From: Aquabacterium humicola
GTDB lineage: Bacteria > Pseudomonadota > Gammaproteobacteria > Burkholderiales > Burkholderiaceae_C
DNA: 64,000 nucleotides
NCBI RefSeq assembly: GCF_030167915.1
Contig: NZ_JARGNB010000002.1
Coordinates: forward strand, 744,001-808,000
Direction of reading: 5' to 3'
Part shown: positions 48,992 through 51,751 of the stretch, piece by piece
Position numbering within the stretch: position 1 is the stretch's first letter
How the letters are laid out: each line of letters starts with the position of its first letter
The notes under the pieces: generated by a model
The model's database searches: none
The model's input: the letters and a program-made list of their open reading frames with translations, nothing else
What the model was told of the DNA's origin: nothing
Made by a program: the position numbers and the translations under genes

Positions 48992-49003
48992 CATGGGTGT
49001 GCG

Positions 49004-49057
49004 GTTTTCCACCGCTGTGCACCGAAGCTCCCCCGCTCATCCACAGCACTGTCCACA
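49004..49057 (+). promoter_or_regulatory. DnaA-box-like cluster before dnaB
   Basis: TCATCCACA (49037-49045) differs from the E. coli box TTATCCACA at one base. CTGTCCACA (49049-49057) lies 12 bases on and GTTTTCCAC (49004-49012) upstream, both weaker. They occupy the dnaB promoter region. DnaA control of dnaB is inference. Confidence 0.4.
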
Positions 49058-49095
49058 GGCTGGCGCGAAGGGCGGCCGTATCATCGCCAGCGCCC

Positions 49096-50523
49096 ATGTC
49101 CGCCGTCTTCCGCTCCGCTGATTCCCCACCCGCCGACGACGAGGTCGCGCGGCTGCGCATCCCGCCGCATTCGAACGAGGCCGAGCAGAGCGTGCTCGGC
49201 GGCCTGCTGCTGGACAACCTGGCCTGGGACCGCGCCGGCGACCTGATCACCGACAGCGACTTCTACCGCTACGAGCACCGCGAGATCTTCAACGCCATCG
49301 CCGCGCTGATCAATGCCAGCAAGCCGGCCGACGTGATCACGGTGTACGAGCGCCTGCAGAGCAACGGCAAGGCCGACGCCTGCGGTGGCCTCGCGTACCT
49401 CAACGCGCTGGCGCAGAGCGTGCCCAGTGCCGCCAACTTGAGGCGTTATGCCGAGATCGTGCGCGAGCGCGCGATCCTGCGCAAGCTGATCTCGGCGTCC
49501 GACGAGATCGCCACCAACGCCTTCAACCCGCAGGGCCGCGCGGTCTCGCAGATCCTCGACGAGGCCGAGGGCCGGATCTTCAAGATCGGCGAGGAAGGCT
49601 CGCGCGGCAAGCAGGGCTTCCTCAGCATCAGCCAGCTGGCGGTCGAGCTGATCGACCGCGTCACCGAGCTCGCCGAGAACGGGGCCGAGGACGTCACCGG
49701 CGTGCGCACCGGCTTCTACGACATGGACCGCATGACGGCCGGCCTGCAGAAGGGCGACCTCGTGATCCTTGCGGCGCGTCCCTCGATGGGCAAGACCGCG
49801 TTCGCGCTGAACATTGCCGAGAACGTCGCCGTGCAGGAAGGCCTGCCGGTGCTGGTGTTCTCGATGGAAATGGGCGCGTCGCAGCTGGCGCTGCGCATGG
49901 TCGGCTCGCTCGGCCGCATCGACCAGAGCGGGCTGCGCACCGGCCGCATCAAGGACGACGAGTGGGGGCGCCTGACCGAGGCGGTCGACAAGCTCGCCAA
50001 GGCGCCGATGTACATCGACGAGACGCCGGGCCTGAACCCCGCGGAACTGCGCGCCCGCGCGCGCCGCATGGCGCGCCAGCACGGCACCGTCGGCCTGATC
50101 GTCATCGACTACCTGCAGCTGATGAGCGGCACGTCGAAGTCCGACGGCGAGAACCGCGCGACCGAACTGTCGGAGATCTCGCGCGGCCTGAAGGCGCTGG
50201 CCAAGGAGCTGCAGTGCCCGGTGATCGCGCTGTCGCAGCTGAACCGCTCGGTCGAGACCCGCACCGACAAGCGGCCGATGATGAGCGACCTGCGCGAATC
50301 CGGCGCCATCGAGCAGGACGCGGACGTGATCATGTTCATCTACCGCGACGAGTACTACAACAAGCCCGACGGCCCGACGCCGACGAAGGAGCCGGGCGTC
50401 GCCGAGATCATCATCGGCAAGCAGCGCAACGGACCGGTGGGCACGGTGAAGCTGGCCTTCATCAAGCACCACACGAAGTTCGACAACCTCGCCCCGGGCT
50501 CGTTCGGCAGCGGCGAATACTGA
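49096..50523 (+). CDS. dnaB: Replicative DNA helicase DnaB
   Basis: DnaB is the hexameric helicase that unwinds DNA at the fork. The product (475 residues) has the N-terminal collar domain (PHSNEAEQSVLGGLLLDN), a linker helix, and the RecA-like domain with Walker A ARPSMGKTAFALN (Lys233). VIDYLQLMSG (Walker B) and the C-terminal SDLRESGAIEQDADVI complete it. There is no intein. ATG 49096 leaves a 14-residue lead before the conserved region. The rplI-dnaB order is widespread. Confidence 0.97.
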   Translation: MSAVFRSADSPPADDEVARLRIPPHSNEAEQSVLGGLLLDNLAWDRAGDLITDSDFYRYEHREIFNAIAALINASKPADVITVYERLQSNGKADACGGLAYLNALAQSVPSAANLRRYAEIVRERAILRKLISASDEIATNAFNPQGRAVSQILDEAEGRIFKIGEEGSRGKQGFLSISQLAVELIDRVTELAENGAEDVTGVRTGFYDMDRMTAGLQKGDLVILAARPSMGKTAFALNIAENVAVQEGLPVLVFSMEMGASQLALRMVGSLGRIDQSGLRTGRIKDDEWGRLTEAVDKLAKAPMYIDETPGLNPAELRARARRMARQHGTVGLIVIDYLQLMSGTSKSDGENRATELSEISRGLKALAKELQCPVIALSQLNRSVETRTDKRPMMSDLRESGAIEQDADVIMFIYRDEYYNKPDGPTPTKEPGVAEIIIGKQRNGPVGTVKLAFIKHHTKFDNLAPGSFGSGEY

Positions 50524-50591
50524 AGCGGCCTTGCCGCTCGGTCCGGTGGATCGAAGCGGCGGGGTCTGGGTCCTGGACGGATCCACAGGTG

Positions 50592-50607
50592 CTGTATATA
50601 TTCACAG
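50592..50607 (+). promoter_or_regulatory. LexA (SOS) box at the radical SAM gene
   Basis: CTGTATATATTCACAG fits CTG-N10-CAG, the E. coli/Pseudomonas LexA consensus, with an AT-rich TATATATTCA core. It ends one base before the ATG at 50609. A TATATT -10 at 50597-50602 lies inside it and would start transcription at about the ATG. Confidence 0.75.
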
Positions 50608-50608
50608 C

Positions 50609-51751
50609 ATGCGTCGGATCCCCATCGTCCCGGCGGCCGGCGAAGCGCCGGCCACGCCCGGCCACGCGCCGGTCAAGGGGCGCGGCACCGCGTGGGCGCT
50701 CGCGCATCGCTTCAACCGCGACCAGCGCGAAGCCTTCGACGACGGCTGGGGCACGCTGGAGCAGGCGGCTTCGGAAGAAGTGTTGCCCGTGGGCACACAG
50801 GTGCTCGAAGAACACGTCAAGACCATCCTTGCCGGCAACGATTCGCCGGACATCGGCTTCGACCTGTCGATCAACCCGTACCGCGGCTGCGAGCACGGCT
50901 GCATCTACTGCTACGCCCGGCCGACGCACAGCTACCTGAACCTGTCACCGGGCATCGACTTCGAGACCCGCATCATCGCGAAGGTCAATGCCGCGGAGCG
51001 CCTGCGCCAGGCGCTGTCCGCGCGCGCCTACACGCCGCTGGCACTCAACATCGGCTCGGCGACCGACTGCTACCAGCCGGTCGAGCGCCGGCTGGGGATC
51101 ACCCGTTCGGTGATCGAGGTGCTGAAGGACTTCAACCATGCCTTCTCGCTGATCACCAAGTCCGCCGGCGTCGAGCGCGACCTCGACCTGATCGCCCCGA
51201 TGGCCGAGCGGCGGCTGGCCGCGGTATACCTGTCGATCACTTCGCTCGACCCGGCGCTGGCACGGGTGATGGAGCCGCGCGCGGCGGCGCCGCACCGGCG
51301 GTTGAGGGCGATCGAGACGCTGGCCAAGGCCGGCGTGCCGGTGGGCGTCAGCGTGTCGCCGGTGATCCCGTTCCTCAACGAACCCGAGCTCGAGCGCATC
51401 CTCGAAGCGGCACGCGAAGCCGGCGCGACCTCCGCCTTCAGCATCGTGCTGCGCCTGCCGTGGGAAGTGAATCCGCTGTTCCAGGATTGGCTGCAGCAGC
51501 ACTTTCCGGACAAGGCGCTTCGCGTGATGGCCCGGCTGCGCGAGATGCGGGGCGGCAAGGACAACGACGCGCGCTTCGGCAGCCGCATGACCGGGCAGGG
51601 GCTGTGGGCGCAGCTGCTGCGGCAGCGTTTCGAGAAGGCGTGTGCGCGGCTCGGCTACAACCGCCAGCGCGTCGAGCTCGACCTGACGCAGTTCCGACGT
51701 CCGGGTCCGCTCGAGGACGACGGCACGCCGCGCCAGGCGTCGCTGTTCTAG
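50609..51751 (+). CDS. PA0069-family radical SAM protein
   Basis: Radical SAM enzyme (380 residues) related to spore photoproduct lyase-like proteins and to P. aeruginosa PA0069. The iron-sulfur motif is CEHGCIYC with Cys94, Cys98 and Cys101, preceded by KGRGTAWALAHRF and DLSINPYRG. The barrel contains IGSATDCYQPVERRLGITR and VSVSPVIPFLNE. A specific reaction is not known to me. ATG 50609 follows a LexA box directly and has no Shine-Dalgarno, so a leaderless SOS-induced mRNA is likely. In-frame upstream TTG/GTG starts would put the box inside the coding region. Confidence 0.88.
   Translation: MRRIPIVPAAGEAPATPGHAPVKGRGTAWALAHRFNRDQREAFDDGWGTLEQAASEEVLPVGTQVLEEHVKTILAGNDSPDIGFDLSINPYRGCEHGCIYCYARPTHSYLNLSPGIDFETRIIAKVNAAERLRQALSARAYTPLALNIGSATDCYQPVERRLGITRSVIEVLKDFNHAFSLITKSAGVERDLDLIAPMAERRLAAVYLSITSLDPALARVMEPRAAAPHRRLRAIETLAKAGVPVGVSVSPVIPFLNEPELERILEAAREAGATSAFSIVLRLPWEVNPLFQDWLQQHFPDKALRVMARLREMRGGKDNDARFGSRMTGQGLWAQLLRQRFEKACARLGYNRQRVELDLTQFRRPGPLEDDGTPRQASLF

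What the first reader, a model, noticed from the sequence alone, without database searches (positions are those of the whole stretch)
50592..51751. SOS box abutting the start of a PA0069-type radical SAM gene, probably leaderless
CTGTATATATTCACAG matches CTG-N10-CAG closely and ends one base before the ATG. A TATATT -10 inside it would place the transcript start at the ATG itself, and there is no Shine-Dalgarno. As I recall, PA0069 belongs to the LexA regulon of Pseudomonas aeruginosa, so control would be conserved across classes. The family resembles spore photoproduct lyase, so a DNA-damage function is plausible but undescribed to my knowledge.
Basis: partly seen in the sequence, partly recalled or inferred. 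Interest (0 to 1): 0.7.

Follow-up and report, generated by a model that had tools for sequence, protein, structure and literature searches.

The report
LexA operator fused to start codon
A bacterial gene for a putative DNA-repair enzyme has its DNA-damage switch, its promoter and its start codon packed into one 38-base stretch, so its messenger RNA is predicted to begin right at the start codon; the same layout recurs in many related bacteria.

The parts
50574..50579 (+). predicted -35 hexamer TGGACG (4 of 6 to TTGACA), exactly at -35 from the start codon
   Evidence: only promoter-like site in 50300-50800; register enriched in relatives
50592..50607 (+). LexA (SOS) box CTGTATATATTCACAG
   Evidence: conserved in relatives
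50590..50609 (+). extended operator TGCTGTATATATTCACAGCA; its last base is the A of the start codon (many relatives: ATACTG..CAGTAT)
   Evidence: sequence; column composition of 48 aligned relatives
50597..50602 (+). predicted -10 hexamer TATATT (5 of 6), inside the LexA box, 17-nt spacer from the -35, 6 nt before the ATG
50609..50611 (+). start codon ATG and predicted transcription start (+1)
   Evidence: inference; no 5'-end was mapped
50609..51751 (+). PA0069-family radical SAM gene, 380 aa, SPL-like predicted fold; residues 1-60 of low model confidence (pLDDT under 50)
50888..50911 (+). codons for C94-E-H-G-C98-I-Y-C101, the CxxxCxxC cluster motif
   Evidence: the three cysteines are invariant in 46 of 46 aligned sequences
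48997..50523 (+). upstream neighbour, dnaB-like replicative helicase ORF (named by recognition, no family search run); the gap to the ATG is 85 nt
   Evidence: a dnaB-like C-terminal end precedes 20 of 48 gap-1 orthologs and 1 of 62 other boxed ones
50524..50538 (+). small perfect hairpin AGCGGC-CTT-GCCGCT after the dnaB-like ORF, without a T run; read-through is not excluded
   Evidence: sequence; not called as a terminator

Best explanation
This is a LexA-repressed SOS gene whose operator, sigma-70 promoter and start codon are fused. LexA bound to 50592-50607 covers the -10 hexamer and the start point, so transcription is off. After DNA damage RecA-stimulated LexA self-cleavage (recalled pathway) frees the promoter TGGACG-17-TATATT, and RNA polymerase starts at, or within about 2 nt of, the A of the ATG, giving a leaderless mRNA that ribosomes take up by its 5' AUG. 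The product is a spore-photoproduct-lyase-like radical SAM enzyme, most likely one that repairs or processes a DNA lesion. Shown by computation: box, promoter register, conserved geometry, family and predicted fold. Inferred: LexA binding, damage induction, the exact 5' end, leaderless translation and the DNA substrate.
Against: No transcript, binding or induction data exist for this organism. The gap-1 genes are not independent: 51 of 52 fall on one side of the tree, among 67 rows (few columns). The -35 is weak in single genes: exact TTG at -35 in 11 of 50, pair score 7 or more in 32 of 50 and 9 or more in 10 of 50. TATATAT allows a -10 two bases earlier (mean match 4.20 at -14 against 4.24 at -12), so the leader may be 0-2 nt. 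By a duplex-energy measure 6 of 48 gap-1 genes do have some Shine-Dalgarno-like pairing upstream (6 of 41 at gaps of 8 or more). The upstream frame is open in the window and read-through from the dnaB-like gene is possible. The third register (ATG inside the box, 5 genes) has no significant -35 (868 of 5000 shuffles). Of the 21 imuA starts at +7, 7 are GTG and 1 is TTG, weak for leaderless initiation. Own imuA offers both an ATG at +1 and a GTG at +7. 13 of 136 orthologs have no box. One of the 52 (L253) has its box unusually far upstream and may be spurious.
Confidence: 0.75

Rival explanations
1. LexA-regulated but ordinary: the transcript starts upstream (own upstream promoter or read-through from the dnaB-like gene), and LexA at the start codon acts as a roadblock. 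The mRNA has a leader without Shine-Dalgarno, or translation starts upstream (GTG 50546 or TTG 50531).
For: The dnaB-like ORF ends 85 nt upstream with no recognised terminator between, the frame is open to 50531, and a dnaB-like end precedes 20 of 48 gap-1 genes but only 1 of 62 other boxed genes.
Against: The only promoter-like site in 500 bp is the one inside the box. The promoter register follows the start codon in two gene families. An in-frame stop inside the box bars an upstream start in 25 of 52 gap-1 orthologs, and in the congener L193 an in-frame stop lies directly before the box. 28 of 48 gap-1 genes show no dnaB-like end.
Confidence: 0.15
2. The abutting geometry is a frozen accident of one clade: the CAGTAT end of the palindromic operator supplies an AT, so an ATG there is easily gained and simply inherited, without functional coupling.
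For: Gap-1 genes lie mostly in one clade (51 of 67 rows). The three bases after the box are TAT also in 31 of 71 boxed genes that are not gap-1.
Against: Upstream DNA in the clade is scrambled (about 0.35 bits or less in the columns printed) except for box, its flanks and the -35 TTG columns (0.38-0.58 bits), so register and spacing look selected. imuA shows the same coupling in another register.
Confidence: 0.2
3. The box is a chance match and the gene is not under LexA control.
For: The loose pattern CTGT-N8-ACAG occurs by chance about 0.45 times per 64 kb.
Against: Conservation at orthologs, closeness to the genome's other LexA-type sites, and the alpha-type motif in 5 of 7 titled alphaproteobacterial loci (0 of 256 control tiles over the nine loci).
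Confidence: 0.03
4. The enzyme is not a DNA-repair enzyme; it modifies a protein, RNA or small molecule needed during the SOS response.
Against: SPL is clearly the nearest fold, over residues 57-355, and the SOS association fits repair.
Confidence: 0.3

Closest known systems
LexA-regulated splB (COG1533) of alpha- and betaproteobacteria, Sanchez-Alberola et al. 2012 (PMC3323433, one section and passages)
   Same: A LexA site upstream of an SPL-related radical SAM gene, with divergent LexA motifs in the two classes.
   Different: What I read gives no start-codon geometry, promoter register or leaderless prediction. It calls the gene a predicted photolyase and the trait not observed in gammaproteobacteria, whereas the 5 Pseudomonas-group loci here carry a box. 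That the paper's splB equals PA0069/NF033668 is my inference.
Leaderless lexA mRNA of Mycobacterium tuberculosis (PMC2897130, passages)
   Same: An SOS gene whose transcription start coincides with its translation start.
   Different: Another phylum and another gene; fusion of operator, -10 and start codon is not described in the passages read.
Spore photoproduct lyase (4fhc, TIGR04070)
   Different: 13-16% identity, far below the TIGR04070 cut-off, no conserved fourth cysteine.
Lambda cI mRNA from PRM (recalled, no call)
   Same: Leaderless mRNA from an operator-controlled promoter.
   Different: A phage repressor; no LexA.

Membership tests
LexA (SOS) regulon | LexA-type operator in the promoter, conserved at orthologs | tested here: met
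LexA (SOS) regulon | a cognate LexA with a similar box in the same genome | tested here: met
   lexA (213.8 bits, cut-off 110.95) with CTGGATAAAAATACAG 87 nt upstream of its ATG
LexA (SOS) regulon | LexA binding and induction by DNA damage | not testable with these tools
   needs EMSA or ChIP and RNA measurements
PA0069-family radical SAM protein (NF033668) | score above the curated cut-off | tested here: met
   462.1 bits against 360
Spore photoproduct lyase (TIGR04070) | score above the curated cut-off | tested here: not met
   19.3 bits against 400
Spore photoproduct lyase | SPL fold | tested here: met
Spore photoproduct lyase | conserved fourth cysteine (C140 in the solved enzyme's mutants; its role as hydrogen donor is recalled) | tested here: not met
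   only C94, C98 and C101 are cysteine in 46 of 46; the next commonest column (own residue 345) is cysteine in 25 of 46
Leaderless gene | -10 ends 6 nt before the start codon, -35 at -35, no room for a Shine-Dalgarno | tested here: met
Leaderless gene | mapped 5' end at the start codon | not testable with these tools
   no transcript data for this organism

The most novel reading that the evidence does not exclude
One clade of Burkholderiales has rebuilt part of its SOS regulon as leaderless genes. A LexA box serves at once as operator, -10 element and (in the PA0069-type gene) part of the start codon, and the promoter can slide inside the box in steps that keep the start codon at +1 (PA0069 at box offset 17, imuA at 23, possibly 8 in scattered genes). 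Translation of these repair genes during damage would then depend on the leaderless pathway rather than on Shine-Dalgarno initiation.
Probability: 0.5. Interest if true: 0.7.

Novelty: new variant of a known kind. Interest (0 to 1): 0.5.

Why it matters
It makes a clean prediction, one 5' end per gene, that a single transcript-mapping experiment can settle. If true, it shows a repressor operator, a promoter and a start codon evolving as one element, and it suggests that some SOS genes are translated by the leaderless route while cells are under DNA damage. It also bears on annotation: the 'splB photolyase' label for betaproteobacterial SOS genes of this family covers a separate SPL-like family of unproven chemistry.

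Tried and rejected
Chance match: rejected. Upstream start: disfavoured by stops inside the box in relatives. Shine-Dalgarno contrast as evidence: dropped. SD-like tetramers occur in 0 of 48 gap-1 genes but only in 7 of 41 genes with gaps of 8 or more and 0 of 21 with gaps of 2-7, and duplex energies hardly differ (6 of 48 against 6 of 41); the box fills the region anyway. Universal LexA control in the class: not supported (8 of 56). In a search over spaced inverted and GTTC-type repeats CTGT-N8-ACAG (tied with its overlapping ACTG-N10-CAGT form) was still the commonest (6 of 56, 0 in the coding control), but the 48 genes without a CTGT box showed no clear motif. In-box ATG as a proven third register: rejected as proof (no -35 signal). 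SPL membership: rejected by cut-off and cysteine, while the fold likeness is kept. PDB by sequence: no hit for the protein alone; the family profile gave 10 hits up to E 10, best SkfB at E 0.0004, none an SPL. SPL-like proteins for comparison (L382-L384) themselves score below the SPL cut-off (281.2 bits against 400 for L382); hhalign gives 88% probability over 192 columns of the radical SAM core. 5'-RNA folding: nothing unusual (z -0.7).

Selections and rows dropped before counts. The 80 orthologs are the best 80 of 593, so they lean to close relatives. The 136-gene set leaves out matches below the cut-off and four over-cut-off matches that begin after model position 20; one genome (G139) counts twice. 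Of the class set 56 of 60 over-cut-off genes were used: the two family members found again (G000, G114) and two with incomplete N termini were dropped. Aligned-column counts use 48 of 52 and promoter counts 50 of 52 gap-1 genes (too little upstream DNA in the rest). 40 of the 71 imuA loci were chosen from genomes with a gap-1 PA0069 gene, so the imuA split is not a random sample; the 33 'other' imuA genes are those with gaps up to 23. One search counts 7 of 9 alpha-type loci, but two of the nine (L070, L076) are titled only Proteobacteria and were put in because one search had shown the motif there; I therefore quote 5 of 7.

Full report
OBSERVATION. The box CTGTATATATTCACAG is at 50592-50607 and the ATG at 50609. 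It is the only CTGT-N8-ACAG in the window and the only site within three mismatches of the palindrome CTGTATATATATACAG (0 of 100 shuffles). In the whole genome (7.39 Mb) eight places come that close, against one for the reversed control. Among them are the upstream regions of lexA, imuA and an integron integrase. The box is therefore of the type this organism's LexA would be expected to use.

THE GENE. The 380-aa product is a PA0069-family radical SAM protein (462 bits, cut-off 360). It starts 85 nt after a dnaB-like ORF and is followed by a long ORF on the other strand. The first 60 residues have model confidence below 50, and the distance from box to the cluster motif differs among relatives.

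PROMOTER. A consensus scan of 500 bp finds one sigma-70-like site, TGGACG-17-TATATT at 50574-50602, against a shuffle mean of 0.0. The -10 lies inside the LexA box and ends six bases before the ATG. Of 1,336 ATGs on both strands of the window only this one has a pair of hexamers matching at 9 or more of 12 positions in the -35/-12 register; 3 reach 7.

CONSERVATION OF THE BOX. Exact boxes precede 53 of the 80 nearest orthologs in GTDB species genomes (best 80 of 593 hits), against 3 of 1,241 control tiles. In a GTDB-family sample, 136 genes from 200 genomes, 104 have an exact box, 19 a one-mismatch box and 13 none. The 5 Pseudomonas-group loci among the 80 all have one. Of 7 loci titled as alphaproteobacteria 5 carry GTTC-N7-GTTC within 120 nt upstream; with two more that I had picked because they carry it, 7 of 9, against 0 of 256 control tiles. 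This motif as the alpha-type LexA site is recalled. In a class-wide sample only 8 of 56 genes have the CTGT box, so control is not universal.

GEOMETRY. In 52 of the 136 family genes the start codon lies exactly one base after the box: 51 ATG, 1 GTG, 38 genera. Eight more have two bases. In 25 of the 52 an in-frame stop lies inside the box, so translation cannot begin upstream. The box-to-CxxxC distance takes 24 different values, one of them (L253) an outlier, so the operator keeps its distance to the start codon and not to the protein core. In the 48 aligned genes the flanks mostly continue the palindrome (ATACTG...CAGTAT), so the operator's last bases double as the AT of the ATG. A pattern for box, one base and ATG, run over 200 whole genomes, gives 50 places in 44 genomes and 0 in the reversed control. 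38 of the 50 are this gene, one is imuA of the own genome and one an S24-peptidase (UmuD-like) gene; of the other ten, four were read and six were not.

REGISTER TEST. If the mRNA is leaderless, the promoter should follow the start codon and not the box. In the 50 usable gap-1 genes the best 17-spaced hexamer pair is at -35/-12 from the ATG (6.88 of 12; next register 5.12). The -10 half of that score follows from box and spacing; the -35 half lies outside the box and exceeds all 5,000 shuffles (z 8.3, 49 after removal of near-copies), though exact TTG occurs in only 11 of 50. In imuA, 21 of 71 loci have an in-frame start codon seven bases after the box: 21 of the 41 from gap-1 genomes (own genome included) and 0 of the other 30, of which at least two (G075, G182) are also gap-1 genomes. 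In 15 of the 21 an in-frame stop lies inside the box. There the promoter has moved by the same six bases: TTG at -35 in 19 of 21, the -10 now in the right half of the box, z 8.4. Of 33 other imuA genes (gaps up to 23) none has a pair of 7 or more in this register, against 19 of 21; among PA0069-type genes with gaps of 2-40 it is 5 of 58, against 32 of 50. A third layout, an ATG inside the box with a TATACT-like -10 six bases before it, occurs in 5 genes spread over the tree, but its -35 is not significant.

INDEPENDENCE. A tree of 135 partial proteins puts 51 of the 52 gap-1 genes on one side of a supported branch (67 rows). The label changes 10 times on the best tree, 6 of these forced by supported branches (few columns, many unresolved forks). 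The layout was thus probably gained few times and kept. Within the clade the upstream DNA has otherwise diverged, which points to selection on box, -35 and spacing.

LITERATURE. LexA control of splB was predicted in 2012 (PMC3323433, one section read), and splB or a radical SAM protein is named among SOS genes elsewhere (PMC8565304, PMC3765255, PMC7739468, passages). A radical SAM gene is listed in the LexA regulon table of Streptomyces venezuelae (PMC9380542, passage; its family was not tested). M. tuberculosis lexA is leaderless (PMC2897130, passages). Leaderless mRNAs are measured in Burkholderia cenocepacia (PMC4603805, passages) and Cupriavidus metallidurans, there enriched for transcription and for replication, recombination and repair (PMC7563307, passages). 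Searches for leaderless with LexA and SOS (20 of 21 papers listed), with SOS box or start codon (3 of 3) and with Burkholderia and transcription start site (12 of 16), with passages from five of these papers, showed no report of leaderless SOS genes in Betaproteobacteria or of a LexA operator fused to a start codon. Supplementary tables were not readable, and the library lacks most subscription papers.

VERDICT. LexA control of the gene is not new. The coupled operator-promoter-start layout, shared with imuA in one clade, appears to be.

Noticed in passing
L087:1501-1533 (own genome): The own imuA gene has box + T + ATG, and also an in-frame GTG 7 nt after the box where the congener L314 has its GTG; the promoter register favours the GTG.
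   Followed up: yes
L001:1501-1516 (own genome, a 20-kb contig): A LexA-type box CTGTATATATGTACAG (1 mismatch to the palindrome) lies just upstream of an integron integrase gene (TIGR02249), a known kind of SOS control of integrons (recalled).
   Followed up: partly
L084:1501-1516 (own genome): Another 1-mismatch box lies upstream of an ORF with a HEIAH metallopeptidase-like motif; no family search was completed on it.
   Followed up: no
L360:1081-1503 (-): In another family genome an S24-peptidase (UmuD-like) ORF also starts exactly one base after a LexA box.
   Followed up: partly
L066, L074, L078, L081, L083: Pseudomonas-group orthologs carry LexA boxes, although the 2012 survey called splB control not observed in gammaproteobacteria.
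   Followed up: partly
L015:1975-2010: A MAG titled Myxococcales holds a 70%-identical gene with the box-ATG layout, perhaps mis-binned or a recent transfer.
   Followed up: no
L359, L364, L366, L376 and six unread places: Ten box-plus-ATG places in family genomes are neither this gene nor the imuA and UmuD-like ones. L359 and L366 precede ORFs of only 14 and 19 aa, L364 and L376 short ORFs without a Pfam match; six were not read.
   Followed up: partly
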